Part shown: positions 24,488 through 38,373 of the stretch, in pieces | Layout of the letters: the number at the start of each line of letters is the position of its first letter | How positions within the stretch are numbered: position 1 is the first letter of the stretch | Assembly: GCA_017480445.1 (NCBI GenBank) | Contig: JAFVAO010000077.1 | Location: 1 to 39,400 of the forward strand | DNA length: 39,400 nucleotides | Source of the DNA: Lachnospiraceae bacterium | GTDB taxonomy: Bacteria; Bacillota; Clostridia; Lachnospirales; Lachnospiraceae | Reading direction: 5' to 3' | Notes under the pieces: generated by a model | The model's database searches: none | Seen by the model: the letters and a program-made list of their open reading frames with translations, nothing else | What the model was told of the DNA's origin: nothing | Translations under genes and position numbers: made by a program

Positions 24488-24828
24488 CATACGCCTCTTT
24501 CCGGGCCGATGCACCCGATCGGCTCCAAAACAACTACAGTATAATCCAAGTATAAAAAAAAGCAATGCTTTTTGCGGAAAAAGTGAAAAATTATAAAATT
24601 ATTAAGAAATTACCGGAAGAAATTAAAAAATAGGACTTCCTATTTCTGCAATTCTGTATTATAATAAACCATATGCATTGCAACAGTAGTATTTTGATCA
24701 AGGCAGTTTCTGATTATATCTTATGTGAAAATCCCTTACAATACGATACTTTGAGTGTATGTTTAACGAAAAATCATAAAAGATAAGAAAAAGAAAAATG
24801 CAGCGGTAGATTGTATCAGGAGGAAAAA
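24488..24828. promoter_or_regulatory. AT-rich control region ahead of rho, with a palindrome and a -10 box
   Basis: This 340-bp divergent gap is rich in A and T. An 18-bp palindrome AAATAGGA-CT-TCCTATTT occupies 24628-24645, and a perfect TATAAT is at 24660-24665, so the palindrome covers the expected -35 position and could be an operator. A second candidate promoter is TTGATC (24694-24699), 17 bp, TATCTT (24717-24722). Either would leave a rho leader of 100-160 nt, in keeping with the autoregulated leaders known for rho. Confidence 0.5.
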
Positions 24829-26256
24829 ATGAGAGAAAAGTATGAGTCACTGGCACTATTGCAGTTAAAGGAACTTGCGAAGGTGAGGGGGATCAAGGGT
24901 GCTTCCACGATGAAGAAAGGCGAGCTGGTGGAGGCAATGCTGGCAGAGGACGAGCGGCAAAAGAAATTGGCCCAGGCAGCCGAGAAACCGGCGGAGAAAC
25001 CGGTCGACGCGGCACCGGCAAAGAGCGTCCGCACAGCAGGAAGCGCTGTGTCCCGCGACACATCCCGAACACAGGATGCATCCCGTACGCAGGATGCCGA
25101 TGAGGATGCCCAGAGCCTGAAGGAATTGGACAGCGGACAGGAGGCGAGCGGTATACTGGAGGTAATGCCGGATGGATACGGTTTCATCCGCTGTGAGAAT
25201 TATCTGCCCGGGGAGAACGACGTCTATGTGGCACCCAGCCAGATCAGACGCTTCGGCCTGAAGACCGGAGATATCCTGTGCGGCAACAAGCGCATCAAGA
25301 CACAGCAGGAGAAGTTCAGTGCGCTGCTGTTCGTGAAGACGATCAACGGCTATACGCCGGAGGAGTGTGCAAAGCGCAAGAATTTTGAGGATATGACGCC
25401 GATTTTCCCGGACGAGCGCATCAAGCTGGAGACGCCCGGATGCGGCGTGTCCATGCGCGTGATGGATCTGGTGAGCCCGGTGGGTAAAGGACAGAGAGGT
25501 ATGATCGTGTCACCGCCCAAGGCCGGTAAGACGACGCTGTTGAAAGAGGTGGCTAAGTCTATCCTGCGCACCAATCCGCAGATGCATATGCTGATCCTGT
25601 TGATCGACGAGCGTCCCGAGGAAGTGACGGATATCAAGGAAGCCATTGTGGGCAAGAATGTGGAAGTGATCTACTCCACCTTCGACGAATTGCCTGAGCA
25701 TCACAAACGTGTGTCGGAGATGGTGATTGAACGCGCTAAGAGACTGGTGGAGCACAAGAAGGATGTGGTGATCCTCTTAGACAGCATCACCCGTCTGACC
25801 AGAGCCTACAACCAGGTGGTTCCGCCCAGCGGCAGAACGCTTTCAGGTGGTCTGGATCCCGCGGCGTTACATATGCCGAAGCGGTTTTTCGGCGCGGCAC
25901 GCAACATGCGTGAGGGCGGAAGCCTCACCATCCTTGCCACGGCGCTGGTGGACACCGGCAGTAAGATGGACGATGTGGTGTACGAGGAATTTAAGGGTAC
26001 CGGCAACATGGAGATGGTGCTGGACAGAAAGCTTTCCGAGAAGCGCATTTTCCCCGCTATTGATCTGGCCAAATCCAGTACCAGACGAGAGGATCTGCTG
26101 CTGGATGCGGAGGAGCTGGAGGCGATCAACATCATGCGGAAGGCACTCAACGGGTTAAAGCCGGACGAGGCCACCGACAGAATCCTCGATATGTTTGCGA
26201 AGACCAGAAATAACGTTGAATTCGTAAATATGGTGAAGAAGAACAGATTTATCTGA
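24829..26256 (+). CDS. rho: Transcription termination factor Rho
   Basis: Rho is the hexameric RNA helicase that ends transcription. The 475-residue protein has a Rho_N domain (residues ~1-45), a hydrophilic insert of ~60 residues with repeated SRT-QDA units, the cold-shock RNA-binding domain starting near EASGILEVMPDGYGFI, Walker A (PPKAGKTT, Lys234), Walker B (VVILLDSITRLTRAYN) and the C-terminal R-loop region. The ATG at 24829 follows AGGAGG at 6-7 bp. The insert, between Rho_N and the RNA-binding domain, is found in many Clostridia and Actinobacteria and may give extra RNA binding. A terminator follows at once. Confidence 0.97.
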   Translation: MREKYESLALLQLKELAKVRGIKGASTMKKGELVEAMLAEDERQKKLAQAAEKPAEKPVDAAPAKSVRTAGSAVSRDTSRTQDASRTQDADEDAQSLKELDSGQEASGILEVMPDGYGFIRCENYLPGENDVYVAPSQIRRFGLKTGDILCGNKRIKTQQEKFSALLFVKTINGYTPEECAKRKNFEDMTPIFPDERIKLETPGCGVSMRVMDLVSPVGKGQRGMIVSPPKAGKTTLLKEVAKSILRTNPQMHMLILLIDERPEEVTDIKEAIVGKNVEVIYSTFDELPEHHKRVSEMVIERAKRLVEHKKDVVILLDSITRLTRAYNQVVPPSGRTLSGGLDPAALHMPKRFFGAARNMREGGSLTILATALVDTGSKMDDVVYEEFKGTGNMEMVLDRKLSEKRIFPAIDLAKSSTRREDLLLDAEELEAINIMRKALNGLKPDEATDRILDMFAKTRNNVEFVNMVKKNRFI

Positions 26257-26320: not shown

Positions 26321-26349
26321 TTGAAAAAATTCGCGTGTTATGTTATAAT
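26321..26349 (+). promoter_or_regulatory. Promoter of the SipW-AAA-PilZ operon
   Basis: TTGAAA (26321-26326) and a perfect TATAAT (26344-26349) are separated by exactly 17 bp. Transcription from here would give a leader of about 80 nt before the first gene at 26437. Confidence 0.8.
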
Positions 26350-26436
26350 AACTGTGATTATGGGATAGTGCGCTCTTTTTTAGGGCGAAAACAGGTTAAA
26401 ATCCCTATTTATGCGGAGGAAAGGAGGAGCTGTGTT

Positions 26437-27297
26437 ATGACAAAACGGTTAAAGCATCGATTCGTAATTGCGTTGCTCGTTCTGGTGGTCTCCTTTTCTT
26501 CGATGGTGATGGTCACCTTCGCCTGGTATCTCCATCAGGCGGCGGCGCGAACGTCCGATATCCACATGGCTGTGGGCACGGGAAGTTCGCTGCAGATCAG
26601 CAATGCATACGACGATGGCTATGGAACGGCCACGGTGATGGATGAGTTTAAGGGACGATTAAACCCGGTGTCTACAAACCGGATCACGGGTGGTTTCCAG
26701 AAGGTATACGGCTACACGGATGGGGCAGAGAACCAGCCGGCACTGGTGGCGAGTATCTTCGGCGCCAGCGACACGACGGACTACTACAAGACCACGCTGT
26801 ATCTGCGGATCAGTGGAGAAGAGCAGTCCGTGTATATCTCGGATATCGGCTATGAGGATGACGATAAGCTCAATCCGATCTCCACGGCGATCCGTATGGG
26901 GTTTGTGGTGCATGAGGCCGGACGGGATCAGGATGTGCGCGCGGAGTATATCTTCGCCATCAATACAGCGGATAATCCCAAGGCGGAATACAATACCGCC
27001 ACCGGGGAAGAAGGATATGTCTTGGACTGCACCAAGACGGACGGCACGACGGTTCCGATGAATAATTTGTACACCAGTGACAACTATTGTACATACGATA
27101 CCGCTACCGGAGCGGTGACCTTAAAGGACAAATCTCTGGCAATGTTTTCCCTGAAGGGGGACGGCAGCAGCTATGGCACGCCGGTTCAGGTGGACGTCTA
27201 TATCTGGCTGGAGGGGTGTGACAAGGACTGCAGAGACAACCTCTGTAACACAATGTTGGATAAGATCGCGATTTCCTTTGCGAGCAAAGCGGATTGA
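26437..27297 (+). CDS. SipW-dependent secreted protein 1 (camelysin/TasA-type signal)
   Basis: A 286-residue exported protein, first of the operon. It has a basic start (MTKRLKHRF), a hydrophobic core and a SipW-type cleavage region MVTFAWYLHQ, in which an aromatic A-W-Y/F motif replaces the usual A-x-A. The exported part is beta-rich and acidic. Near the C-terminus stands W257-L-E-G-C261-D-K-D-C265, a motif shared by all six cargo-like proteins of this locus, followed by an amphipathic last strand. The start is set by AAGGAGG (26421-26427). By family it should be a surface fibre or matrix subunit or minor component; which one is not known. Confidence 0.82.
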   Translation: MTKRLKHRFVIALLVLVVSFSSMVMVTFAWYLHQAAARTSDIHMAVGTGSSLQISNAYDDGYGTATVMDEFKGRLNPVSTNRITGGFQKVYGYTDGAENQPALVASIFGASDTTDYYKTTLYLRISGEEQSVYISDIGYEDDDKLNPISTAIRMGFVVHEAGRDQDVRAEYIFAINTADNPKAEYNTATGEEGYVLDCTKTDGTTVPMNNLYTSDNYCTYDTATGAVTLKDKSLAMFSLKGDGSSYGTPVQVDVYIWLEGCDKDCRDNLCNTMLDKIAISFASKAD

Positions 27298-27313
27298 ACG
27301 GAGGTGAGGGCTG

Positions 27314-28174
27314 ATGAGAGATAGAACTTCCGAGAAGCGTCCTTCCGCAAAGAGAATATGGGTTTGGGGGCTGGCAATATTGTGGAGCGGCCTCATGCTG
27401 GCGACGGTGGGCGGCGTAACCTACGCGTGGTTTACCTTCAACTCGGCCACCAACGTAGAGCCGATGAGCAGCACAGTCAGCTCCAGTGAGATTGCGCTGA
27501 TGATCTCGAATGATCCGGCGGGGGAGTTTGGCATAGAATGTGCGCTGCCGCAGAGCGTAAAAGGAGATCTACAGCCGTTGTCGACGGCGGATCTGGAGCG
27601 CTTTTATCGCGGGAGCGGCCAGAACAGACAGGGCATCACCGTCACGTATCGGGATGCGACGGATCTGGTGGAGCAGGATACGATCCACGGGGAGGTCTAT
27701 TTGAAAAGTCTTGACAATCCCTGCAATGTGTATCTGTACCGGCCGGGCATGAACTTTGGTGAGGACGCGCAAATGCTGGCTGCACTGCGGCTGGGCATGC
27801 GGATCACGACCGTAAACGGCACCAATACCTACATTTTTGCATTAAATGATATGGGATCGACAGCGGGCGCATCGAGCCGGCAGACCACCGCGCGCACGGA
27901 TGTGGTGGTGAGCAGTATCTCCGGAAGCGGCACCCCGAATTATGTGGAGGATCCCGCGCGGGAGATGGGCAGTTATTTTGCGGTGCCGCCCACAAGCGTA
28001 AACGAGCGGCCGAAGCCCGGCAACGCCATCCTCTGCAGCCTGGAGGCGGATGAGGTGGCCAAGGTGGAATACTGGCTGTATATGGAGGGCTGCGACGCGC
28101 AGTGCGTGAACGCGGCGCAGGATCGGGCGGTGAGTTTGCAGCTGTCCTTTGCGGGGACACGGGTAACAGAGTAA
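27314..28174 (+). CDS. SipW-dependent secreted protein 2
   Basis: A 286-residue exported protein with a charged N-terminus, one hydrophobic segment and the SipW-type region GGVTYAWFTFNS near residues 35-46. It carries Y256-M-E-G-C260-D-A-Q-C264 near the C-terminus, so it has the C-x3-C pair seen also in proteins 1 and 3. A stretch rich in Ser, Thr and Ala (about residues 180-200) may be a flexible loop. GGAGGTGAG precedes the ATG at good spacing, 16 bp after the previous stop. A 6-bp AT hairpin with a GCGAAG loop overlaps the stop codon (28172-28189). Likely a fibre component; no specific function can be given. Confidence 0.82.
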   Translation: MRDRTSEKRPSAKRIWVWGLAILWSGLMLATVGGVTYAWFTFNSATNVEPMSSTVSSSEIALMISNDPAGEFGIECALPQSVKGDLQPLSTADLERFYRGSGQNRQGITVTYRDATDLVEQDTIHGEVYLKSLDNPCNVYLYRPGMNFGEDAQMLAALRLGMRITTVNGTNTYIFALNDMGSTAGASSRQTTARTDVVVSSISGSGTPNYVEDPAREMGSYFAVPPTSVNERPKPGNAILCSLEADEVAKVEYWLYMEGCDAQCVNAAQDRAVSLQLSFAGTRVTE

Positions 28175-28214
28175 AAAGCGAAGTTTTTATAGTAGCAGAA
28201 AGGAGGAGATACAT

Positions 28215-29084
28215 ATGCATGCAAACAGCAACGGATTCAAAATCGCGCTGGTGTTCGCGATGCTTGCCGCGCTTGCAGTGGCGACCGGAACGGCGACGTA
28301 TGCGTGGTTTTCCTCCAACAGCGTGGTGGAGACAGATATGGCCAGCGGGCGGTCCGGAACGGATGAGGTGAAGCTTTTGGTGAGCTCCTCCGGCGGCGGA
28401 TCCTTTCGGGGGGCGGAAGAGGCCTCCATCGAGCAGGTCAACAAGACCAAAACCGACAATCTGATGCCGGTCTCCACAGCGGATCTTTCTCATTTTGTGT
28501 ACAATACGGGAACCGTGCAGGGCGAGGCGGTTCATTTTGAAAAGGTGAAGGATGAGCAGTATTATTACCACGGCCGGATCTATCTGCAGGCGGTGGCGGA
28601 AGACCGCGACAAAAGCGAGCGGATGGCGCTGTATCTGGACAACGCGTCGGAGAATGGCGGCGAATTCCTGCAGAACACGAAGGGATCGATCGCCAATGCA
28701 GCTCGTCTGGGGCTGACCTTCGACGACGACAACAAAGTGATCCTGCGGCTGAGTGAGGAGAGCAACGCCAAGAGCGAGCAGGCGGGAGATACCGTCATAG
28801 ACGGAACCAGGCTTTCGACGGGGCAGGTGATTGACAGCTCCGGCAGCTCCCTCAAAGCGGTGAAGGATCCTTCGGTGGCGCTGAAAGAGTACCTGGCCGG
28901 CGATAACGGTCTGGGGGAAGGGGCGACAGAACCGCTTCTGTTGATGGAACTCAACCGGATTTATACGGTGGACATATACTTTTATCTGGAGGGCTGTGAT
29001 CCGGACTGCTCGGATGTGACACAGCTCGGGAAGACGGATTTTCACCTTGCTTTCTACGGTGTGTTGGCGGAAGGGGGCAGGTAA
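28215..29084 (+). CDS. SipW-dependent secreted protein 3
   Basis: A 289-residue exported protein. The signal is short and typical: MHANSNGFK, a hydrophobic core, then TATYAWFSSNS near residues 29-39. The exported part begins with a Gly/Ser-rich stretch and ends with Y257-L-E-G-C261-D-P-D-C265 and a final beta strand. A strong AAAGGAGGAG precedes the ATG. The stop codon is directly followed by the start of the next gene with no gap, so the two are translationally coupled. It is close in length and motif spacing to proteins 1 and 2, which suggests an ancestral gene that was duplicated and then diverged strongly. Confidence 0.82.
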   Translation: MHANSNGFKIALVFAMLAALAVATGTATYAWFSSNSVVETDMASGRSGTDEVKLLVSSSGGGSFRGAEEASIEQVNKTKTDNLMPVSTADLSHFVYNTGTVQGEAVHFEKVKDEQYYYHGRIYLQAVAEDRDKSERMALYLDNASENGGEFLQNTKGSIANAARLGLTFDDDNKVILRLSEESNAKSEQAGDTVIDGTRLSTGQVIDSSGSSLKAVKDPSVALKEYLAGDNGLGEGATEPLLLMELNRIYTVDIYFYLEGCDPDCSDVTQLGKTDFHLAFYGVLAEGGR

Positions 29085-29891
29085 ATGGAAGAACAGCGTG
29101 TGCAGACGACGAAAAAAATGCAGAGGCGGCGGGTTTACACCTCGATTCTGTTAGCCCTTGTCGCATTTGTCAGTGTCTCCGCGGCATCCGTGGCGTGGTT
29201 CACGATTGCGGATTTTACCAAGGTGCACAGTATGAATGTGGAGATTACCACGGGCATGAATCTGCGGTTTGATCTGGACGCCCATGAGACGTTTGACGAG
29301 TACGTGAAGACCCTTACCTTTGCGGAGATCGCGAACCGGATCGCCCGGGTGAAGGGATTTGATATGCGGACGACGCCGTTAGAGCCGGTGACGACAACGG
29401 ATTATGAGACGTTCACGTTTGAGAACGGAACGGTGGTGTCGGATGAAAGCGGCGTATATCTGGAATTTGTGCTGCATTTTATGGCGACGGACGATATGCT
29501 GGTGCATTTGACCAGTGCCGACAGCGACACGGCTCGGGACGGCACGCGGATCTCGTCGGACAACAGCAGACTGCCCGAGGCAATGCGGATCAGTTTCACC
29601 GTGGACGATGAAACCTATGTGTTTGATCCCGGGATGGGAGATGTGCGCAGCGAGAAGCTGCACGTGAAGCAGTTCGGGCTGCCGGCTGCCGATCGAATGG
29701 TACTCAATGAGAACAACCAGTTATTCTGGCTGGAAAAGGATACCGATCAGCCGGTCACCGTGCGGGTTTGGCTGGAAGGCACGGATCCGGTGTGTACGGA
29801 TGACCTGCGCGATGCGGATTACAGTATCCGCCTGCGGTTTGTGGGAACAGACCGCGACAACAATGTGTTAGACGGTTCCAAACGGCGTTAA
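29085..29891 (+). CDS. SipW-dependent secreted protein 4
   Basis: A 268-residue exported protein. After a longer basic start (KKMQRRRVY) comes a hydrophobic core and AASVAWFTIAD, the SipW-type region with Val instead of Tyr before A-W-F. The C-terminal motif is W229-L-E-G-T-D-P-V-C237, so the first Cys of the C-x3-C pair is replaced by Thr. The exported part is acidic with many Thr and Asp. It is the last cargo gene before the first signal peptidase, and the start lies immediately after the previous stop codon. Function as for its neighbours, by family only. Confidence 0.8.
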   Translation: MEEQRVQTTKKMQRRRVYTSILLALVAFVSVSAASVAWFTIADFTKVHSMNVEITTGMNLRFDLDAHETFDEYVKTLTFAEIANRIARVKGFDMRTTPLEPVTTTDYETFTFENGTVVSDESGVYLEFVLHFMATDDMLVHLTSADSDTARDGTRISSDNSRLPEAMRISFTVDDETYVFDPGMGDVRSEKLHVKQFGLPAADRMVLNENNQLFWLEKDTDQPVTVRVWLEGTDPVCTDDLRDADYSIRLRFVGTDRDNNVLDGSKRR

Positions 29892-29915
29892 TACATGCGG
29901 AGGGAGACTGACGAG

Positions 29916-30683
29916 ATGGGAAAAGTCAAAAAAGCAGTGGAGATCATACTGAGCGTGCTTCTATGGTGTATTATCCTGTTGACGGCACTTTTTACATTCA
30001 CGACATTGGCTACCCGGGATGACAGAAGTGTTGCCAGAGTGCTGGGCTTCACGCCGCTGATCGTCAAATCGGATTCCATGGCGCCCACCTTTTACGCGGG
30101 GGATCTGATCATCATCAGCGCGTGTGATACGGCTGCATTGCAGCAGGGCGATGTGATCACCTTCCACACCATCATCAACAATGAATATGCGCTGAATACG
30201 CACCGGATCGAGTCCGTCACGGAAGAGGGCGGTTTCCGGAGCTATACCACCAAGGGTGACAACAATGCGATTGCGGATGCGCGGCTGGTTACCGACAGCG
30301 ATATCGTCGGGCAGTATAAGCTGCGGGTTCCGGTGCTGGGACGTGTGCTGACGTTTTTGTCCAGTAGCATGGGCTTCCTGATTGTAATCGTCCTGCCGAT
30401 GCTGTTGTTTTTGATCTATCAGATCTACCATCTCGTGATCGTCAGCATCAATTTGAAGAAAGCGATTGCGGTGGAGGAAGCGACCAGACAGGCGGAGGAA
30501 GACGCGCAGGCCGAGGAAGCGCTTGCGAAGAAGGACGCGGAGGCTGAGGCGAAGCTGGCCGAAGCCCAGGCGGCACTGGCTGAGGCCAAACGCCTGAAGG
30601 AGGAAGCCGAGGCGCGTCTGGCGCAGGTTACAGGTGCGGAAGAAGTAAAAGAAATAACGAGCGGGGATAAGAGGAATGAGTGA
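29916..30683 (+). CDS. SipW-type (ER-type) signal peptidase I with long cytoplasmic helical tail
   Basis: A 255-residue membrane serine protease that would release the cargo proteins. Catalytic Ser54 lies in KSDSMAPTF and the general base is His96 in NTHRIES, not Lys, which marks the archaeal/ER/SipW type; TKGDNN follows. Helices lie at residues ~8-32 and ~150-180. After the second helix is a tail of ~75 residues rich in Ala, Glu and Lys that should form a coiled coil, absent from typical SipW. The ATG at 29916 is preferred to 29895 because GGAGGGAG lies between them. The 3' end overlaps the AAA+ gene by 8 bp. Confidence 0.9.
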   Translation: MGKVKKAVEIILSVLLWCIILLTALFTFTTLATRDDRSVARVLGFTPLIVKSDSMAPTFYAGDLIIISACDTAALQQGDVITFHTIINNEYALNTHRIESVTEEGGFRSYTTKGDNNAIADARLVTDSDIVGQYKLRVPVLGRVLTFLSSSMGFLIVIVLPMLLFLIYQIYHLVIVSINLKKAIAVEEATRQAEEDAQAEEALAKKDAEAEAKLAEAQAALAEAKRLKEEAEARLAQVTGAEEVKEITSGDKRNE

Positions 30684-32352
30684 ATTTCTAAAGCTCGCCT
30701 ATGAGCTGATTGCAAAAATTATCTATAACATTGTACAGTGTTTTGTGGCGCTGTTCCATCTGCTGTTTACGGGGTGGGGCGAATACGCGCTGATCTTTAA
30801 CACCTACTTTTGGACGCTGACGCCGGTGGCGAAGGTGCTGGCGATCATTCTGGCGCTGGTGCTGATCGCGATACCGGTGTTGATCGTGGTGCTGGCGGCA
30901 AGGCATATCGTGCTGAATATCCGGCTGCGGGCGGATAAGGAGGACAACTCCACGCTATATCGCGAGATCGGCCGTCTGAACAAGCAGGTGCTGGATCTGA
31001 TCGATGAGAAAAACAAACTGCTGGCACTGAAGGTAAACGCCATGGGAGGCACGGAGCGCATCCCCTACATGGGTGCCTCGGCGCTGGCAGACGATAAGCT
31101 GCCTACAGTGGGCAACGTGACTTCCGGCCAGATGGCGGTCGGCGCAGACGGCGTACCCATTGCAGTGGGCGGTGTAGGCGATGTGAATGTGGAAAATGTG
31201 GGTGAGGGTAAGCAGCTTGGCGTGGTGACGATCAACAAGGAGATGACGTCGGAGGATCCCAGCCTGAACATGGCGATTCGTTTCCCGAAGCTGACACTGG
31301 TGGACGAACGCTACAAGGATTATGTAAAACCTGCGTACGACAATAGTGTCACCCTACAGCAGTTTACCGAAGGTTATCGGCTGTTTGCGGCGAGCCAGCT
31401 GCACCTGTACTATACGCAGGAGATCGTTCGTCGTTTCGTGGCCGGTATGGCGGCCAGCAAGATCCTGATCTTAGAGGGTATCTCCGGTACCGGTAAGACC
31501 AGCCTGCCTTACTCCTTCAGCCGTTACCTGCTGAATCCGGCGACGCTGGTATCCGTACAGCCCTCCTACAGAGATCGTACGGAGCTGTTGGGCTATTTTA
31601 ATGAATTTTCCAAGCGTTTCAATGAGACGGAGTTTCTGCGGGCACTGTATGAGGCCGGTTACAGAGAAGATCCCAGCTTTATCGTGCTGGATGAGATGAA
31701 CCTGGCGCGTATTGAGTACTATTTTGCAGAGATGCTCTCCGTGCTGGAGATGCCCAGCCATGACGAGTGGGTGCTGGATCTGGTGCCCACCAGCTGGCCC
31801 AAGGATCCGGTGCTTTTGGAGGAAGGCAAGATTCACGTGTCGGATACCAGGTGGTTCGTGGGAACGGCGAACAACGACGACTCCACCTTTACTATCACGG
31901 ATAAGGTGTACGACCGTGCGATCCCGATCGAGTTAAACGAGCGGGCGGCAGCCTTTGAGTGCGAGTCCTATCCGGCCTGCCCGATCTCCACGACGCATCT
32001 GCAGGAGCTGTTTGCCAAGGCGAAGGAAGAGCATCCGATCAGCGATGCGATGCTGGAGAAAATGAACAAATTGGACGTCTATCTGCAGACACGTTTCAAG
32101 CTTGCGTTTGGTAACCGTATCATCAAGCAGATGTATGAATTCATACCGGTCTATGTAGCCTGCGGCGGTACAGAGGTGGACGGCTTCGATTATATCATTG
32201 CCCGTAAGGTGCTGAAAAAGTTCGAGAGCTTGAACGTCAGCTTCGTGCGGGATGAGATCAAGGGCTTGATCGAATACATCGAGAAAACCTTCGGTAAGGC
32301 ACATATGGAAGACAGCAAATCGTATCTGACCAGGATACAGAATCTGTATTAA
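30676..32352 (+). CDS. Membrane-anchored McrB-like AAA+ ATPase
   Basis: A 558-residue protein with two hydrophobic segments (about residues 14-33 and 47-77), a short coiled coil (to ~120), a Gly/Val-rich linker and a C-terminal AAA+ module. Walker A is GISGTGKT (268-275, Lys274), Walker B is IVLDEMNLAR (Asp339, Glu340), and VGTANNDDST with DKVYDRA supply sensor 1 and a possible Arg finger. The DEMN-LAR-EYYF pattern is that of McrB/MoxR-type ATPases. No nuclease or DNA-recognition domain is seen. It overlaps the signal peptidase gene and is followed after 12 bp by the coiled-coil partner. It probably remodels or drives a membrane complex for the cargo; that is inference. Confidence 0.87.
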   Translation: MSEFLKLAYELIAKIIYNIVQCFVALFHLLFTGWGEYALIFNTYFWTLTPVAKVLAIILALVLIAIPVLIVVLAARHIVLNIRLRADKEDNSTLYREIGRLNKQVLDLIDEKNKLLALKVNAMGGTERIPYMGASALADDKLPTVGNVTSGQMAVGADGVPIAVGGVGDVNVENVGEGKQLGVVTINKEMTSEDPSLNMAIRFPKLTLVDERYKDYVKPAYDNSVTLQQFTEGYRLFAASQLHLYYTQEIVRRFVAGMAASKILILEGISGTGKTSLPYSFSRYLLNPATLVSVQPSYRDRTELLGYFNEFSKRFNETEFLRALYEAGYREDPSFIVLDEMNLARIEYYFAEMLSVLEMPSHDEWVLDLVPTSWPKDPVLLEEGKIHVSDTRWFVGTANNDDSTFTITDKVYDRAIPIELNERAAAFECESYPACPISTTHLQELFAKAKEEHPISDAMLEKMNKLDVYLQTRFKLAFGNRIIKQMYEFIPVYVACGGTEVDGFDYIIARKVLKKFESLNVSFVRDEIKGLIEYIEKTFGKAHMEDSKSYLTRIQNLY

Positions 32353-32364
32353 TGAGAGGGACAA

Positions 32365-34875
32365 ATGGCAAATTCAATTAACGATCTTTATCTGAAATAT
32401 GCAAATAAGGTCGGCAGGACATTGGAGAGTGACCGATATTTCCAATACCTGTTTGAGATGGTACAGGCGGGCTCCAATGTATTTCAACAGAAATATCAGG
32501 TGATGCACAAGGTGGTGGATGAACGCTGGCTGGCCACCATCGAGAACAGCATCGACGCCATCAACGAGATCATCGATAAGCCGCGGCGGTTCGTGACCAC
32601 CAAGGAGGAAGTGGTGCCGGTGGCACTGGCCAAGAAGATTACAGCGGACAGTGTGCGGCATCTGAGCATGAACACCCAGTTCATTGCCAGCAGTGAGAAT
32701 GGCGACATCCAGCCCACCCGTGTGCTCAATGTCAGCACGGAGGAGAGCTATAACCTGTACGAAAACCGTTTTATCTACCATTTGATCCAGCGGCTCGTGA
32801 CCTTCATCGATAAACGTACGGATGTTATCTTCTGGGCGACCGGTGACGAGACCCAGAACGTGCTGAATTTCCAGAGCCAGATCGACGATGCTTACGAGGA
32901 GATCCAATACAAGATCGAAATGACGATCAAGAACCGTCAGAGCTTCGCGGAAAACGAGTCTGACAATATGCAGCTCTTCATGCGGATCGACCGCGTGAGA
33001 CGTATGGTGCTGGCGCTGAAACGGTCGTCCTTCTGTGATATCATGGCGGGATGCTCCAAAGTGCGCAGCCCGATCCAGCGTACCAACCTGATCATGAAGG
33101 ATCCGAATTACCGCACCTGTTACCAGCTGTGGCAGTTTTTGGAAAATTATGATGACGTGGGCTACACCATCGAGGTGCAGGACAGCGCGCTGGAGTTTGA
33201 TGAGGAGTACATGATCCAGATGTACACCAACCTGATCACCAACTACACCGTGTTCAAGAGCCTGATGGAGGGCGATTCCCGCAGACTGGAAGAAGTGGCG
33301 AACCAGAAGCGCAGAATCATCCGCCCCAAGTTTATCAAGAAGATCAAAGAAGAATTCGTCGAGGACCGCAATATAGAGGATGTGGAGATCCGCAGAGTGT
33401 TTGTGGAGGAAGTGACCCAGGCACAGCTGGATGCGGAGGCCGCACTGGAGCGCGAGACCGAGGCCAGAAAGCAGGCGGAGCAGAACCTGGAGGACATGGA
33501 TGCGCAAATGATCGCTCTGCAGCAGCAGGTGTCCAACCTCATGATGATGAATCAGGAGGCAGAGGTTCGGGCAGAGGAAGAACGCCAGGGCAAGGAAGCC
33601 GCCCAGCAGGAAAAGGAAGCGGCCGAGCAGGAAAGAGACGCCGCGCTGCAGGAGGCACAGACGGCAAAACAGGCGCAGGAAGCAGCTGAGGAACAGGCAA
33701 AGCAGGATGTCGCGGCGGCACTTGCACGCGAACAGTCCGGCATTGCGGCGGCGCAGCAGAAAGCGGATGCGGAGATTGCCGGAACCAAGGCACAGGCAGA
33801 GAAAGAGATCGCAGACATGCGCCAGCAGGCGGACACAGAGATCGCCGAGGCGAAGGCACAGGCAGAGGGTGCGATTGCGGACATGCGGCAGCAGGCGGAT
33901 ACAGAGATCGCCGAGGCGAAGACGCAGGCAGAGAAAGAGATTGCAGACATGCGGCAGCAGGCGGACACAGAGATCGCCGAGGCGAAGACGCAGGCAGAGA
34001 AAGAGATTGCAGACATGCGGCAGCAGGCAGACACAGAGATCGCTGAGGCGAAGCAACAGGCGGAAGCAGATGTCCGTGCGGCGGAGGATCACGCTGAGGA
34101 ATCCCGGCGCCAGGCGCAGGAATCCAAGGCGGACGCGAAACGCCGGATCGATGATGCGCTGCACAAGGCAGAGGAGATCAAGACCCGGGCTGAAGCGAGC
34201 GTCGCAGAGGTGACCGCGCAGCTACAGACACTGCAGCAGGAGAAGGATACACTTGCTGCTCAGTCCAGACAGAGAGAAAACGAGCTGACCGAACAAGTCA
34301 ATGCAACAAAGAATCTATTGGAAAATACCAGAAAACAGGCGGAGGACGACGCGAGAAAAGCACACGCAGAGCAGGAACGATTGACCCGTGAGGCTAGGGA
34401 ACAGCTCGACACCTTGACCAGAGAAAAACAAGAGCAGCTTGCTGCGGAACAGGAGAGTAATCGACAGACAGTCGCACAGCTGCAGAGAGAACACGCCGAG
34501 GCGGTCGAAGCGGCGGATCGCGCTGCCAAGAGCCAGCTGGAAGAAGTGGAGCGCCGGCTGCAGGAGCGCATTGCAGAGCTGGAGCGCAGGAACAGCCAGC
34601 TGAGCGAACAGCTGGACGAGGCCAACACAGCCTGGGAGCAGCTGGAGGAACGACTGGAAGATACCGAGCAGCAGGCCGAAGCAGCCCGCGAACAGGCGAG
34701 ACGCATGAAGGAAAAAGCAGAAGCCAACACGCTGTCCCACTATATTATATCACGATTAAACAATCGCAAGCAAAAGCAGAATACGCCGGATGGCGAGGCC
34801 GCTAGAACCGAAGCGGCTAATGTGGTCAGGGATGACTATGACGATGATAGAAACGGGGACGACGGACAAGGATGA
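32365..34875 (+). CDS. Large coiled-coil protein with possible DUF2357-like N-terminal domain
   Basis: An 836-residue soluble protein without signal or membrane span. Residues 1-~330 form a globular domain; its YENRFIYHLIQRL segment (near 132-144) recalls DUF2357, a family usually paired with McrB-like ATPases, but the match is from memory and weak. Residues ~345-790 are an almost unbroken coiled coil rich in Gln, Glu and Ala, including four to five 22-residue tandem repeats (QQADTEIAEAK type). The C-terminus is acidic (DDYDDDRNGDD). A rod tens of nanometres long is expected. It directly follows the AAA+ gene and overlaps the second peptidase gene by 4 bp, so the three are likely partners. 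No nuclease motif is seen. Confidence 0.8.
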   Translation: MANSINDLYLKYANKVGRTLESDRYFQYLFEMVQAGSNVFQQKYQVMHKVVDERWLATIENSIDAINEIIDKPRRFVTTKEEVVPVALAKKITADSVRHLSMNTQFIASSENGDIQPTRVLNVSTEESYNLYENRFIYHLIQRLVTFIDKRTDVIFWATGDETQNVLNFQSQIDDAYEEIQYKIEMTIKNRQSFAENESDNMQLFMRIDRVRRMVLALKRSSFCDIMAGCSKVRSPIQRTNLIMKDPNYRTCYQLWQFLENYDDVGYTIEVQDSALEFDEEYMIQMYTNLITNYTVFKSLMEGDSRRLEEVANQKRRIIRPKFIKKIKEEFVEDRNIEDVEIRRVFVEEVTQAQLDAEAALERETEARKQAEQNLEDMDAQMIALQQQVSNLMMMNQEAEVRAEEERQGKEAAQQEKEAAEQERDAALQEAQTAKQAQEAAEEQAKQDVAAALAREQSGIAAAQQKADAEIAGTKAQAEKEIADMRQQADTEIAEAKAQAEGAIADMRQQADTEIAEAKTQAEKEIADMRQQADTEIAEAKTQAEKEIADMRQQADTEIAEAKQQAEADVRAAEDHAEESRRQAQESKADAKRRIDDALHKAEEIKTRAEASVAEVTAQLQTLQQEKDTLAAQSRQRENELTEQVNATKNLLENTRKQAEDDARKAHAEQERLTREAREQLDTLTREKQEQLAAEQESNRQTVAQLQREHAEAVEAADRAAKSQLEEVERRLQERIAELERRNSQLSEQLDEANTAWEQLEERLEDTEQQAEAAREQARRMKEKAEANTLSHYIISRLNNRKQKQNTPDGEAARTEAANVVRDDYDDDRNGDDGQG
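33754..34086 (+). repeat. 66-bp in-frame tandem repeats in the coiled-coil gene
   Basis: Units start at 33823, 33889, 33955 and 34021, exactly 66 bp apart, with a diverged partial unit from about 33754. The units starting at 33889 and 33955 are almost identical in DNA, which points to recent copying or gene conversion. Each encodes 22 residues, two hendecads of coiled coil. Confidence 0.92.
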
Positions 34876-35492
34876 AGTGGCAAGTGTGGATTTTACGATT
34901 GATCAATCTGCTTTCGGTGAGTCTGATCGTCTGCTCGATCGGTGTACTCCTGACCGTGGTCATGACCAAGACAGGAGAAGCTCCGAATATCTTCGGCTAT
35001 TCTCTGTTCCGCGTGATGACAGGCAGTATGGAGCCGACGATTCCGGTGGACTCCCTGATCGTTGTACATCGCGTGGCGCCGGAGACCCTGCGGGAGGGAG
35101 ATGTGATCTCCTTCTATTCGAGCGACCCCAGCCTGATGGGGGCGGTGAATACCCACCGGATCATCGGGATTGAACAGGACGGCAGCGGCTATCGCTTTTC
35201 GACCAAGGGCGACGCCAACAATGTGGAGGACCGCTATACGACTGCCGGAGAAGACGTAATCGGTAAAGTGATCGGCTCTTCCTACACACTGGGGAAAGCG
35301 GTGCGGCTGATGGCCAATCCACTGATCTTTGTGCCCCTCATCATGCTGCCGCTTGCGGTCATGCTTGGCCACAGCGTCATTGAGAGTGTGGTGCTGGCGA
35401 GGAAGCTGGCGAAAGAGGAAGAAGAGGCTGCGGTGCGGGAGGCCATTGCGACCATCCGCCAGAAGAAAGCGCAGGAAGAAAATAAATCATAA
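34872..35492 (+). CDS. Second SipW-type signal peptidase I
   Basis: A 206-residue membrane serine protease of the same ER/SipW type. Ser52 lies in MTGSMEPTI and His95 in VNTHRIIGI, followed by STKGDANN. Helices lie near residues 8-31 and 143-168, and a short charged helical tail follows. It is clearly a distinct paralogue of the peptidase at 29916: the signature MTGSMEPT is the classical one, whereas the first reads KSDSMAPT. The ATG overlaps the previous stop (ATGA), which implies coupling to the coiled-coil gene. Two such enzymes in one operon suggest division of labour between cargo proteins. Confidence 0.9.
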   Translation: MKWQVWILRLINLLSVSLIVCSIGVLLTVVMTKTGEAPNIFGYSLFRVMTGSMEPTIPVDSLIVVHRVAPETLREGDVISFYSSDPSLMGAVNTHRIIGIEQDGSGYRFSTKGDANNVEDRYTTAGEDVIGKVIGSSYTLGKAVRLMANPLIFVPLIMLPLAVMLGHSVIESVVLARKLAKEEEEAAVREAIATIRQKKAQEENKS

Positions 35493-35504
35493 GAGGTGTA
35501 AAAC

Positions 35505-36188
35505 ATGGCAGGAAGCCTTAGAATCAAGACCGGAACCAAGCTGCAGATGGCGGTGGATGTTGCGGTAGGTGAAGAACCGAATTTTAATATGATCTGTACG
35601 TTCAATAAATCGCTGGACGAATCGGCATTTTTGATCTCCATTCCCATGCAGAACGGACAGCCGCTGCAGGTGGACGAGAGCCAGAAGCTTCTGATCCGCT
35701 ACGGATCCGGCAATGACGCCATGATTCTCGCAGGTTATGTGGACGACATCGTCAAGGATGGCATCCGACGCTACTGGAAGGTGCGCCGCGTGTCCGAACA
35801 GCGACAGTTCTTACAACGTGTGGACGAACGTCTGAAGGTGACGCTGCGGGTGGAATACAAGCAGGAGACCTGGGCGGTGAATGCCGACGGCGTCATTGAG
35901 AAAGAGGACGGTATGAGTCTGGATATCTCCGCCGGTGGTGCTGCTATCTACCTGAATCGCCATTTTGACGTGGGAGAGATCTGCGAGCTCACCCTGCCCC
36001 GCATCGGCACCACGGATAAAGGGCGTGCAATGGAAGACTTGGTGGGTACTGTCTGCTGGATGCGAGAGGCGCCCAAGGGAAGCCTGTATAAACATCTCTG
36101 TGGTCTGCAATTCCGTTTCTCGGATCCTTCCGAGCGGCAGCGGCTGCAGGAATACATACAAAACGTAAAGGAAAAATATAGACTGTGA
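35505..36188 (+). CDS. PilZ-domain protein, YcgR-like, probable cyclic-di-GMP receptor
   Basis: A 227-residue cytoplasmic protein. Residues ~1-95 form a YcgR-N-like beta domain and residues ~96-225 a PilZ domain. The D-x-S-x-x-G motif is intact (D140-I-S142-A-G-G145). The N-terminal Arg motif is slightly unusual: R100-x4-R105, with R105-x3-R109 as an alternative reading, where R-x3-R is the rule. AAGAGGTG precedes the ATG at good distance. It lies 12 bp after the second peptidase gene and overlaps the next gene by 4 bp. If it binds cyclic-di-GMP it would link fibre assembly to the same signal that controls biofilms and motility. Confidence 0.88.
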   Translation: MAGSLRIKTGTKLQMAVDVAVGEEPNFNMICTFNKSLDESAFLISIPMQNGQPLQVDESQKLLIRYGSGNDAMILAGYVDDIVKDGIRRYWKVRRVSEQRQFLQRVDERLKVTLRVEYKQETWAVNADGVIEKEDGMSLDISAGGAAIYLNRHFDVGEICELTLPRIGTTDKGRAMEDLVGTVCWMREAPKGSLYKHLCGLQFRFSDPSERQRLQEYIQNVKEKYRL

Positions 36189-37135
36189 AAATCTGGACAA
36201 AGGGAAAAAAATCCGCGGGAAACCCCAAGGATCAGATTGTCCGCATTGAAGAGCTGGAAAAGATTATGGCGGAACAGGGCGATGACCTCGACACCGATGC
36301 CATCGTCAGCATGTATATGCCCGGACGCCGTGCAAAGCGTCTCGGCGCAGCATTGCTTCGTCTGGATAAGATGCATTTTCTGTTGCTTCTGTTGGTGATT
36401 GCGGTGGCGTTCCTGTTCATCCTTGCTTTTATGCAGGAGAAAATGGGCAACTTCACCATCAACCTGAACCGACTGGAGCTCTATCGCAAGGGCATCGCCA
36501 TCTCCCCCACAGGAGAATTCGAGCAGCCCACAGCCAGACTGACCGTGGCCACGGTGCAGGACGCTACCAACATCTCCGTCTATGACCTGCCGGAGAACCT
36601 GGACGACATCGACGGCGATCACAACGGCCGCAACTACATGGCCTACACCTACTATGTGCGCAATGCGGGCAAGGAAGATGTCAACTACATAGCAAGTATC
36701 GTGCTGGATTCCGTCGCAAAGAGTGCCGATGAGGCGGTCCGCGTGGCGGTGTGGCGCAATGGCGAGCGCACGATCTACGCCAAGCGCGCAGCAGACGGCG
36801 GCGACGAAGAAGGCTGCGTCAGCTTCTTGAGCAACAAGGTGGTCTGCGCCTACCAGGAGGAGAATTTCCTCGTGGGCAACGTCGACAAATACACCATCGT
36901 GATCTGGATGGAGGGGGATGACCCCGAGTGCGTGGACGCCATCGTCGGCGGCAGCGTGCAGTTCTCCATGCCCATCGATGCGGTGGATGACGACGATACC
37001 GGCCTCCTGGTCAAGTTCATTCAGGATATCAAGGATACCCTGACCGGCGACAAACCCATCAGCGCGGCCGGCAACGAGGCCCCCAGCTACTACAATTCCG
37101 GGGATGTCACATGGGAAAATCGTAGAAATCAGTAG
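36185..37135 (+). CDS. Membrane-tethered cargo-like protein
   Basis: A 316-residue protein starting with GTG at 36185, overlapping the PilZ stop by 4 bp (GTGA). It has a cytoplasmic part of ~60 residues with many Lys and Arg, one membrane helix (FLLLLLVIAVAFLFILAF, about 63-80) and an outer domain that ends like the secreted cargo proteins: W241-M-E-G-D-D-P-E-C249 followed by a beta strand. It lacks a SipW-type cleavage motif, so it should stay in the membrane, cytoplasmic N-terminus inside. This makes it a good candidate for the anchor or base of the fibre. The start is uncertain, as no strong ribosome site is near; ATG 36269 is an alternative. Confidence 0.78.
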   Translation: MKIWTKGKKSAGNPKDQIVRIEELEKIMAEQGDDLDTDAIVSMYMPGRRAKRLGAALLRLDKMHFLLLLLVIAVAFLFILAFMQEKMGNFTINLNRLELYRKGIAISPTGEFEQPTARLTVATVQDATNISVYDLPENLDDIDGDHNGRNYMAYTYYVRNAGKEDVNYIASIVLDSVAKSADEAVRVAVWRNGERTIYAKRAADGGDEEGCVSFLSNKVVCAYQEENFLVGNVDKYTIVIWMEGDDPECVDAIVGGSVQFSMPIDAVDDDDTGLLVKFIQDIKDTLTGDKPISAAGNEAPSYYNSGDVTWENRRNQ

Positions 37136-37548
37136 ACATTTCTAAACTTTTGGCATAAAATGACGATATAATCGTTGCAGAGGAAAACAAGCGCTGCGAA
37201 GCAGCATTTGTTTTCCTGCAACGATTAACGAGAAAGCCCTGACGCGAAGCGGCAGAGGACGCGCCGTAAGGCGCAGGCTTTCGAGTGAAGGTGGTTTAAG
37301 CAGTGACGCGTCCACTGTTTAAATAAATAATGCAAATGCCGCACTTGGAGGCTGTTATGGAATCGGCTGATTCTATCAAGAGATGGTATCCTCACCGGAT
37401 GACGGTGATGGAGAGTACTCTTTCAACCGGGCCCGGTGGGAGTATGATCTGTTGACAGAATGAAAAGAGGACAGAACGCCGAGATGTGAGGCAACTGTCA
37501 CCGCTACAGAGCATGAAAAGCGGAATAAGAAAGAGGGAGGATAAAATT
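37136..37548 (+). other. Hairpin-rich 413-bp leader between the operon and the last cargo gene
   Basis: No gene is seen here. Three strong hairpins come first: 37169-37227 (TAATCGTTGCAG pairing with CTGCAACGATTA, AAAACAA with TTGTTTT, tip GCTGCGAAGCAGC), 37232-37282 (GAAAGCC pairing with GGCTTTC, enclosing CGCGAAGCG and GCGCCGTAAGGCGC) and 37295-37323 (CAGTG pairing with CACTG inside TTTAA/TTAAA arms). Smaller palindromes follow: GAATCGGCTGATTC, CACCGGATGACGGTG and ACCGGGCCCGGT. GAGGGAGG at about 37534-37541 is the ribosome site of the next gene. The order suggests a structured mRNA leader, with the first hairpin perhaps ending the upstream operon. I could not match any known riboswitch class. 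Confidence 0.65.
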
Positions 37549-38373
37549 ATGACAGTAAAAGCATTAAAGAAACAACTTATGGCTGCAATTGCTATGGTTG
37601 TCGTGTCTGCGATCGCGTTGAGTAGCAGTACGTATGCATGGTTCTCTATGAATACGCAGGTTACGGCAACGGGGATGACCGTACAGGCGAAAGCAGAGTC
37701 AGGGCTCGTAATTTCAAACGCAGATGACGGTTCTTACAATAATTCGGCAACTTCAGTTAAGACCACATGTGCCCAATTGGTACCTGGAAGTACAACAAAT
37801 CTTGGCGACTGGTTTCATAGTTCTAGTACAAACCCTGCTGCAGCAAATACACAGCAAGCATACGATGTAGGTAGTGCATGGGTTAATAATGAAACGGTTG
37901 CAAATTATGTGGTTCACGATTTTTACATTCGTTCGTCTGCGACAACAGATCTCACTGTTCCGGCGCTCCGTGTGCAGAAAGTAGAAGCAAAAGTTGGGGA
38001 TGCTGCAGCACAACAGAATTTGTCAAAAGCACTTAGAGTTGGTGTGCTGATTGCCGGTGATGAAACGGACAACAAGCAAAATATTTATATTTATGCGCCG
38101 GTGAGTGGTGCGACATTGTCTTATAGTGCAACAGCGGCGGATGGAGCGTATGCTGCGGGTAACATGGTTACAGTAACCGCGTTGGAGGGGAACACTGCAT
38201 CTGCTACTGCAATCACTACCATTCCCGCAAAAAATGCCAATAGCGGATTGCATGCACAAGTTTTTGTGTGGTATGAAGGTGAAGATGCGGCATGTATCTC
38301 TAACAACATTCCTACAAAGGTTCTTGAGCAATTAACAGTTACTGTAACATTTGATTATGTACCAGCTTCTTGA
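37549..38373 (+). CDS. SipW-dependent secreted protein 5, candidate major fibre subunit
   Basis: A 274-residue exported protein: basic start (MTVKALKKQ), hydrophobic core, then SSTYAWFSMNT near residues 25-36. The mature part is rich in Ala, Thr, Ser and Asn with few charged residues, unlike the acidic cargo proteins 1-4, and ends in W241-Y-E-G-E-D-A-A-C249 plus a final beta strand. Codon use and base composition are more AT-rich than the operon upstream. The start at 37549 is fixed by AGGGAGG. It stands apart behind a structured leader and may be transcribed at a higher rate, which fits a main subunit. This role is inference from position and composition; no homologue with known function is recognised. 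Confidence 0.82.
   Translation: MTVKALKKQLMAAIAMVVVSAIALSSSTYAWFSMNTQVTATGMTVQAKAESGLVISNADDGSYNNSATSVKTTCAQLVPGSTTNLGDWFHSSSTNPAAANTQQAYDVGSAWVNNETVANYVVHDFYIRSSATTDLTVPALRVQKVEAKVGDAAAQQNLSKALRVGVLIAGDETDNKQNIYIYAPVSGATLSYSATAADGAYAAGNMVTVTALEGNTASATAITTIPAKNANSGLHAQVFVWYEGEDAACISNNIPTKVLEQLTVTVTFDYVPAS

What the first reader, a model, noticed from the sequence alone, without database searches (positions are those of the whole stretch)
26321..38373. A SipW-cargo, AAA+ ATPase, coiled-coil and PilZ gene set: candidate cyclic-di-GMP-controlled surface-fibre assembly system
One promoter leads ten genes with gaps of 0-40 bp or overlaps of 4-8 bp: four SipW-type secreted proteins, a SipW-type peptidase, a membrane-anchored McrB-like ATPase, a giant coiled-coil protein, a second SipW-type peptidase, a PilZ protein and a tethered cargo-like protein; a fifth secreted cargo gene follows. 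The known Bacillus SipW locus (tapA-sipW-tasA) has one peptidase, two cargo genes and no ATPase or PilZ. Gene order and overlaps are seen directly; that they form one machine is inference. I do not know of a published account of this combination.
Basis: partly seen in the sequence, partly recalled or inferred. Interest (0 to 1): 0.9.

Follow-up and report, generated by a model that had tools for sequence, protein, structure and literature searches.

The report
Restriction-type motor wired to surface-protein export
A gut bacterium carries an operon in which a membrane-anchored relative of a DNA-restriction enzyme motor sits with dedicated signal peptidases, their surface-protein cargo and a likely cyclic-di-GMP receptor; such sets recur in other gut bacteria and probably build a switchable surface structure, but nobody seems to have tested this.

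Summary
The ten-gene operon is real (26437-37135, +). Its "AAA+ ATPase" is a membrane-anchored McrB-type NTPase; its "coiled-coil protein" is a McrC-type DUF2357 protein with a coiled coil where McrC has a nuclease. Bell et al. (eLife 2024) named this kind CoCoPALM in a few sentences, so it is not wholly unpublished. New here: (1) the peptidases are SipW-type; in 11 Ruminococcus loci one is fused to the DUF2357 protein; (2) the AAA has its own cargo family and an uncleaved-looking homologue (TETH), found in 14 of 15 SipW-linked-AAA genomes and 0 of 376 others; (3) 42 of 56 well-flanked loci carry a c-di-GMP-type gene in one of three unrelated forms (PilZ, degenerate EAL, HD-GYP), against 0 of 13 ordinary McrB loci; 8 of 11 in a later sample; (4) a covarying ~90-nt RNA matching no Rfam family precedes the fifth cargo gene in 7 of 7 copies. 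Against: three carrier genomes show no GGDEF domain; close kin L035 and L037 lack PilZ and TETH. Fibre building and motor action are inference; no fold could be predicted. Best reading: a McrBC-derived surface-protein export or assembly machine, c-di-GMP-gated in most lineages.

The parts
26321..26349 (+). promoter-like site (TTGAAA-17-TATAAT, TG before the -10)
   Evidence: similar site at -114 to -122 in window, L016, L031, L032, L038, 5 of 13 scanned
26437..27297 (+). cargo C1 (one N-terminal hydrophobic segment, TFAWY signal, WLEGCDKDC)
27314..28174 (+). cargo C2 (TYAWF signal, YMEGCDAQC)
28215..29084 (+). cargo C3 (TYAWF signal, YLEGCDPDC)
29085..29891 (+). cargo C4 (SVAWF signal, WLEGTDPVC)
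29895..30683 (+). SipW-type signal peptidase 1
   Evidence: TIGR02228 4.5e-32; catalytic Ser 134 of 138 and His 136 of 138 across SipW domains
30676..32352 (+). membrane-anchored McrB-type AAA+ NTPase (hydropathy TM near residues 11-29 and 54-72, NTPase about 240-420)
   Evidence: profile A7 hits E. coli McrB 6hz4 at 2.2e-5; GISGTGKTS, LDEMN, NNDDS invariant in 83 of 83; TM
32365..34875 (+). McrC-type DUF2357 protein with long coiled-coil/repeat C-terminal half
   Evidence: PF09823 3e-13 on residues 1-378; 56 of 59 relatives match; 66-bp repeats 33787-34061
34872..35492 (+). SipW-type signal peptidase 2
   Evidence: TIGR02228 4.9e-24; a SipW domain is fused to the DUF2357 protein in 11 other loci
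35505..36188 (+). YcgR-like PilZ protein (RVDER and DISAGG motifs present)
   Evidence: PF07238 4.7e-12 and PilZNR 1.7e-4, just under cut-off; motifs
36185..37135 (+). tethered cargo homologue TETH (one hydrophobic segment at 65-83, no AW-type site, WMEGDDPEC)
   Evidence: family hhalign to cargo 98.4% over 211 columns
37175..37221 (+). long hairpin without U tract between TETH and C5
   Evidence: -24.5 kcal/mol, z -5.3
37372..37461 (+). conserved covarying RNA element in the leader of cargo C5
   Evidence: no Rfam match at E <= 1
37549..38373 (+). cargo C5 (TYAWF signal, WYEGEDAAC), 413 bp after TETH

Best explanation
The locus is a CoCoPALM-type system that exports and probably assembles one family of surface proteins. 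Shown by sequence: a McrB-type NTPase with N-terminal hydrophobic segments, its DUF2357 (McrC-type) partner without a recognisable nuclease, two SipW peptidases with the Ser-His pair, five cargo proteins of one family with AWF-type signals, one homologue without that signal (TETH), and a PilZ protein with c-di-GMP-binding motifs. Inferred: the NTPase ring sits on the inner face of the membrane and is driven by the DUF2357 protein. The coiled coil (or direct fusion, as in Ruminococcus) couples that complex to SipW, so cargo release from the membrane and polymerisation onto the tethered homologue occur at one site. The PilZ, EAL or HD-GYP protein ties activity to c-di-GMP in most lineages. The RNA leader sets the amount of the fifth, perhaps major, subunit.
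For: SipW-linked AAAs lie on one side of one branch (99 rows, SH-aLRT 96), apart from 20 ordinary McrB rows. Of 56 loci with at least 5 kb on both sides: DUF2357 56, two or more SipW-bearing genes within 10 kb 52, c-di-GMP-type gene 42; clear TETH (E <= 1e-25) 47. Later sample L226-L236: clear TETH 10 of 11 (the other, L234, is cut 605 bp upstream), SipW 10 of 11 (the other, L235, is cut 454 bp after the AAA), c-di-GMP-type gene 8 of 11. DUF2357-SipW fusions in 11 loci. TETH in 14 of 15 SipW-linked-AAA genomes and 0 of 376 others. In G000 both above-cut-off SipW genes and all cargo-family genes found lie in this locus. EAL or PilZ within 7 kb in 11 of 16 genomes against 0.49 expected. The TETH family is homologous to cargo.
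Against: I found no fibre, export or NTPase assay. Cargo could not be tied to TasA or any solved fold by sequence, and no structure prediction could be run. Three carrier genomes (G1005, G698, G1013) show no GGDEF domain, so c-di-GMP is unlikely to be the signal there. Fourteen of 56 well-flanked loci show no c-di-GMP-type gene, among them close kin L035 and L037, which also lack TETH in the stretch held. Clear TETH is missing from 9 of 56. SipW-dependent matrix polymers in Bacillus and C. perfringens are described without a motor in the operon. FtsB homology of the AAA N-terminus, part of the published description, was not seen with Pfam. The tree is a quick one with long-branch warnings.
Confidence: 0.55

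Rival explanations
1. Spatial scaffold rather than motor: the NTPase is a switch that makes the DUF2357-coiled-coil protein assemble into a membrane scaffold (pole or septum) which places SipW and cargo; hydrolysis resets assembly and does no work on cargo.
For: Long repetitive coiled coil with DivIVA/Wag31-like similarity, 1.4e-5 but far below that model's cut-off; DUF2357 protein length varies from 365 to 1335 aa; weak FtsL match in 4 of 31 AAA proteins.
Against: 13 of 68 complete DUF2357 proteins are under 500 aa and leave no room for the long coil, while Walker A, Walker B and NNDDS never vary in 83 AAAs.
Confidence: 0.18
2. Signalling by regulated cleavage: the NTPase gates SipW so that tethered or secreted proteins are cut in response to a signal; the products are signals or shed adhesins, not fibres.
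For: SipW fused to the DUF2357 protein in 11 loci; a tethered cargo homologue in 47 of 56 loci.
Against: TETH lacks the AW-type site in 65 of 65 strong hits, though 8 have a looser A[FY][FYW]; several cargo genes per operon look like bulk substrates.
Confidence: 0.12
3. Type IV restriction or anti-phage defence: the McrB/McrC pair is a CoCoNuT-like defence system beside surface genes.
For: AAA matches a PADLOC candidate family, PDC-M26A, 1.7e-35; McrB ancestry.
Against: No nuclease family among the operon proteins scanned; 13 of 68 complete DUF2357 proteins are under 500 aa; hydrophobic N-terminus; SipW and TETH near this AAA branch and near 0 of 20 ordinary McrB rows; 8 distant McrB-like relatives only in viral contigs.
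Confidence: 0.06

Closest known systems
[quoted passage not shown] section 7 read, other passages seen)
   Same: NxD-type McrB NTPase with TM-bearing N-terminus, McrC homologue with coiled coil, signal peptidase family proteins nearby
   Different: The text seen names no SipW type, cargo, tether, SipW fusion, c-di-GMP gene or RNA element; its supplements were not readable here
CoCoNuT and classical McrBC type IV restriction systems
   Same: McrB-type AAA paired with DUF2357
   Different: No nuclease found, hydrophobic membrane anchor, tied to SipW and cargo
Bacillus subtilis tapA-sipW-tasA (PMC9674648, passages)
   Same: Operon of SipW peptidase and secreted subunits; TapA proposed as nucleator
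   Different: One peptidase and no NTPase or DUF2357 protein in the operon as described; cargo family not shown to be related
Clostridium perfringens sipW-bsaABCRSD (PMC7395162, passages)
   Same: Dedicated SipW needed for export and polymerisation of matrix protein BsaA
   Different: Two-component control; no McrBC-type pair in the operon as described

Membership tests
CoCoPALM | McrB-type NTPase with NxD motif | tested here: met
   NNDD in 83 of 83; the 7 of 22 other McrB loci in which the script found the motif read NMDE, NVDE or NEDE there. NNDD also satisfies NxxD to the letter
CoCoPALM | N-terminal TM domain homologous to FtsB | tested here: inconclusive
   Two hydrophobic segments found; Pfam shows FtsL weakly in 4 of 31 and no FtsB among the 25 of 44 families listed
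CoCoPALM | McrC homologue (DUF2357) | tested here: met
   PF09823 3e-13, 56 of 59 relatives
CoCoPALM | coiled coils on McrB and McrC homologues (usually) | tested here: inconclusive
   Coil-like segments found on the DUF2357 protein only; a simple home-made test found none on the AAA
CoCoPALM | associated signal peptidase family protein | tested here: met
   Two SipW genes. SipW in 56 of 56 well-flanked loci of the branch, but the branch was picked by SipW plus L072; the tree is the independent check
McrBC restriction | PD-(D/E)xK nuclease on McrC | tested here: not met
   No nuclease family found by Pfam in the operon proteins; 13 of 68 complete DUF2357 proteins are under 500 aa. No structure-level test was possible
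SipW (ER/archaeal-type signal peptidase) | Ser-His catalytic pair | tested here: met
   Ser 134 of 138 (2 of the rest are gaps), His 136 of 138, both window copies intact
TasA/camelysin fibre subunits | sequence or fold relationship to TasA | tested here: inconclusive
   No meaningful PDB hit by profile, Camelysin 0.11 for C5; fold prediction unavailable
c-di-GMP-binding PilZ | RxxxR and [DN]xSxxG motifs | tested here: met
   RxxxR 10 of 10, [DN]xSxxG 9 of 10, window both; motif names recalled

The most novel reading that the evidence does not exclude
A restriction-enzyme motor (McrBC) was converted, in Clostridia and some Bacilli, into the second-messenger-gated engine of a surface-fibre machine: an NTPase-driven SipW 'assemblase' with its own subunit family, a nucleating tether, interchangeable c-di-GMP receptors and, in the window's lineage, a new class of RNA regulator on the main subunit gene.
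Probability: 0.3. Interest if true: 0.92.

Novelty: new variant of a known kind. Interest (0 to 1): 0.74.

Why it matters
McrBC proteins are known for cutting foreign DNA. A branch that lost the nuclease, moved to the membrane and in some lineages is fused to a secretion peptidase would be a clear case of a defence enzyme turned into an envelope machine. It would make Gram-positive surface-fibre assembly an NTP-driven, c-di-GMP-gated process in rumen and gut bacteria, including cultured Ruminococcus albus and R. flavefaciens strains, where it can be tested.

Tried and rejected
Defence reading: rejected as the main one (no nuclease found; SipW and TETH near this AAA branch and not near ordinary McrB; 8 distant McrB relatives only in viral contigs). 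c-di-GMP riboswitch: none in the window (Rfam gathering) nor in the C5 leader at E <= 1. DUF2357 profile against PDB did not reach McrC; hhalign against two ordinary DUF2357 proteins gave 62% and 86%. Cargo profile against PDB gave only pectate lyase at E 0.65 and 0.87. A home-made heptad test found no coil in the two SipW proteins or the AAA. G1228's weak RNA hit (7.4e-4) is not in such a locus and is treated as chance. In one search the alignment is poor at the EAL motif itself; only the DDFGTG aspartates and the KID lysine are used.

Dropped rows and limits: L153 and L154 (same records as L078 and L060) were dropped. In one search the branch was picked by SipW within 7 kb plus L072 (contig starts 16 bp upstream; no SipW within 7 kb downstream), so SipW counts there are partly by definition. 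The TETH count (51 of 56) also counts cargo caught by the same model; one search gives 47 with clear TETH. My first signal-motif test was too loose and flagged some TETH proteins, the window's among them; one search is the strict one. The chance estimate uses rounded genome sizes and assumes random placement and independent genomes. One search compared 8 regions and one search scanned 13 loci, all close to the window. One search is a quick tree with long-branch warnings and no bootstrap.
Full report
Anatomy. The window is a whole 39,400-base contig of a 2.17 Mb, 82-contig draft genome; its nearest AAA relatives are Lachnospiraceae MAGs. After the Rho gene (24811-26256, named from its sequence, not scanned) comes a strong promoter-like site at 26321-26349, then ten + strand genes with gaps of -8 to 40 bp. 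The first gene starts at ATG 26437, behind a GGAGG box. The fifth cargo gene starts at 37549, 413 bp after the tenth gene.

What the two odd genes are. Gene 6 is a McrB-type AAA+: a profile of 31 relatives finds E. coli McrB structures (6hz4, E 2.2e-5). GISGTGKTS, LDEMN and NNDDS are invariant in 83 of 83 sequences, and two hydrophobic N-terminal segments precede the NTPase domain. In 7 of 22 other McrB loci where a script found the motif, it reads NMDE, NVDE or NEDE, the NxD form of Bell et al. Gene 7 carries DUF2357 (PF09823) at 3e-13 when its first 378 residues are scanned alone; the scan of the whole protein did not list it. Of 59 relatives, 56 match DUF2357. DUF2357 is the part of McrC that activates McrB (PMC11090510, introduction passages). 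Pfam found no nuclease family in the operon, and 13 of 68 complete DUF2357 proteins in the SipW-linked loci are shorter than 500 aa, so neither nuclease nor long coil is part of the core.

Distribution and linkage. By record title these include Lachnospiraceae, Ruminococcus (albus 8, albus KH2T6, flavefaciens YRD2003, FC2018), Oscillospiraceae, Erysipelotrichaceae and Bacilli; one Collinsella-labelled MAG may be misbinned. A class sample of 391 genomes gave 21 with the AAA, 15 SipW-linked; a family sample gave 15 of 200, two of them of the sister type. In a quick tree of 131 AAA rows, the 99 SipW-linked rows (L072 included) are one side of a branch (SH-aLRT 96), and the 20 ordinary McrB rows are one side of another (99); the program warns of long branches. 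Among 56 loci with at least 5 kb on both sides, DUF2357 is present in 56 and two or more SipW-bearing genes in 52; clear TETH is in 47.

Fusion. In 11 loci, all labelled Ruminococcus, the DUF2357-coiled-coil protein continues into a SipW domain. Such a fusion argues for physical coupling of the McrC-type subunit and the peptidase. The Ser-His pair is kept in 134 and 136 of 138 SipW domains. In 9 of 13 carrier genomes, every SipW above the curated cut-off lies in this locus, G000 included; in G802, G816, G837 and G1005 others lie elsewhere.

Cargo and tether. C1-C5 and the tenth gene share a [WY]xEGxDxxC motif; the strict WxEG form is in 40 of 71 cargo proteins. An AW(F/Y/L/Q) site is in 67 of 71 cargo proteins and in 0 of 65 strong TETH proteins, of which 8 have a looser A[FY][FYW]. 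In the window's genome all five cargo genes, plus a partial match to the tenth gene, lie here and none elsewhere at E <= 0.001 (draft 83% complete). The TETH and cargo families are homologous along 211 columns (hhalign 98.4%, E 9.8e-15). Across 391 class genomes, TETH occurs in 14, all among the 15 with SipW-linked AAA; the exception, G915, has a cut contig that holds part of TETH (Fisher 8.5e-25). It is not always beside the AAA: in G837 and G1014 it lies elsewhere.

Second messenger. PilZ here keeps RxxxR and DxSxxG. PilZ is only one of three solutions. Ruminococcus-type loci have a stand-alone EAL protein just before TETH (30 of 30 aligned proteins, one of them the longer L043 protein, match Pfam EAL). 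In the other 29 the DDFGTG aspartates are D in 2 and 5 and the KID lysine is K in 1, so it looks like a receptor rather than an enzyme. Others have HD-GYP, alone or joined to EAL. In all, 42 of 56 well-flanked loci have one of these within 7 kb on the same strand (EAL 33, PilZ 9, HD-GYP 7), against 0 of 13 well-flanked ordinary McrB loci (0 of 20 in all) and 0 of 12 sister AAA rows. A later family sample, read after this pattern was noted, gave 8 of 11 within the stretch held, Pfam-confirmed, with HD and HHExxDGxGYP intact in 7 of 7 HD-GYP proteins. In G756, G698 and G1005 the only EAL gene found in the genome is in the locus; in G292 and G802 the only PilZ gene found is. Random placement predicts 0.49 of 16 genomes with EAL or PilZ this close; 11 were seen (9 of 12 counting one per genus). 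Against: G1005 (85% complete), G698 and G1013 show no GGDEF domain, and G756 one weak match; there the signal must be something else, or the domain is kept for contact only. Close kin L035 and L037 carry neither PilZ nor TETH after the second SipW. The window's genome has 26 GGDEF matches.

RNA element. The gap before C5 holds a ~90-nt stretch (37372-37461); window 37370-37462 folds at -44.4 kcal/mol (z -5.9). It is found in the leaders of C5-type genes in L016, L031, L032, L033 and L036. A covariance model searched in 200 family genomes found one new strong copy, in G1144 (E 8.9e-11). That copy lies 56 nt before the C5-type gene of a complete operon of the same order, PilZ included; both genomes with strong hits are AAA carriers. 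On the seven copies (six distinct), the main helix has 97.1% of cells paired and five pairs changed on both sides; 0 of 500 shuffles reach the whole-structure value on four measures and 11 of 500 on the fifth, and sliding the partner destroys it. The inner helix is weak (78.7%, no pair changed on both sides). The alignment was fitted to the model, which favours the structure; the rod is near-palindromic, so the minus strand also matches, weakly (36 against 93 bits in the window). No Rfam family matches at E <= 1. All seven copies precede C5-type genes, by 56-164 nt in six; in L036 the first in-frame ATG follows by 1 nt and the likelier start comes later. It was not seen in the other 49 of 55 loci searched, so it seems limited to the window's lineage. 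It could be a riboswitch, an attenuator or a stability element.

Mechanism. Shown: genes, order, domains, motifs, linkage, fusion, co-occurrence and covariation. Inferred: the AAA ring and DUF2357 protein form a membrane complex that controls SipW, releases cargo and lets it polymerise on TETH, with c-di-GMP receptors as gate. By analogy TETH would play TapA's proposed nucleating role (PMC9674648, passages), and SipW would be needed for polymer export as in C. perfringens (PMC7395162, passages). Whether the NTPase does work or only switches assembly is open.

Literature. Bell et al. (PMC11090510; section 7 read in full, other passages) define CoCoPALM in a few sentences and defer it to a later paper; the preprint PMC10542128 (passages) says the same. 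Searches for DUF2357 with SipW (0 papers), CoCoPALM (ten listed, only these two relevant by title), DUF2357 (five listed), SipW with c-di-GMP and PilZ (two, unrelated by title and abstract start) and pairs among McrBC, SipW, c-di-GMP and 'coiled-coil and pilus' (83 papers, 15 seen in the listing) showed no account of the cargo, the fusion, the c-di-GMP genes or the RNA. The library is open-access only, and supplements were not readable.

Noticed in passing
L163 7748-15594; L164, L165, L166 8240-17187, L167; also L237, L238: Sister type AAA-DUF2357-AAA (AAAs with hydrophobic N-termini around one DUF2357 gene) without SipW, TETH or c-di-GMP gene by the models used. In L163 and L166 it is followed by a 903 and a 1341 aa TM-bearing protein with a transglutaminase core (8e-22, 3e-21); L164, L165 and L167 have a large TM protein there too, not scanned. 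A second envelope-linked McrBC-type system.
   Followed up: partly
L058, L079, L081, L099, L105: Bacilli-type loci with five further conserved genes (about 198, 204, 310, 351 and 256 aa) and, in the stretch held, no c-di-GMP-type gene by the models used; the extra upstream SipW-like protein in L081 and L079 has lost the His.
   Followed up: partly
24 loci, e.g. L075 14548-15003: A conserved ~150-aa one-TM protein follows the DUF2357/SipW genes in Ruminococcus-type loci; the one member scanned (L050) reaches no Pfam cut-off.
   Followed up: no
window 37175-37221: Near-perfect 20-bp-stem hairpin without U tract between TETH and C5, -24.5 kcal/mol.
   Followed up: no
G1005, G698: Genomes with an HD-GYP+EAL protein in the locus, the only EAL found, but no GGDEF domain found.
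   Followed up: partly
L016 1191-3997; L037 14340-14789: Arginyl-tRNA synthetase and a prepilin-peptidase-like (A24_N) gene lie just upstream of the operon in the same-genus relative; similar genes in 4 and 3 loci, L016 included. In L037 a short protein that looks like a prepilin peptidase (by eye only) follows the second SipW.
   Followed up: no
L017 16754-19901: Giant secreted repeat-rich protein after the cargo genes, possibly an adhesin partner.
   Followed up: no
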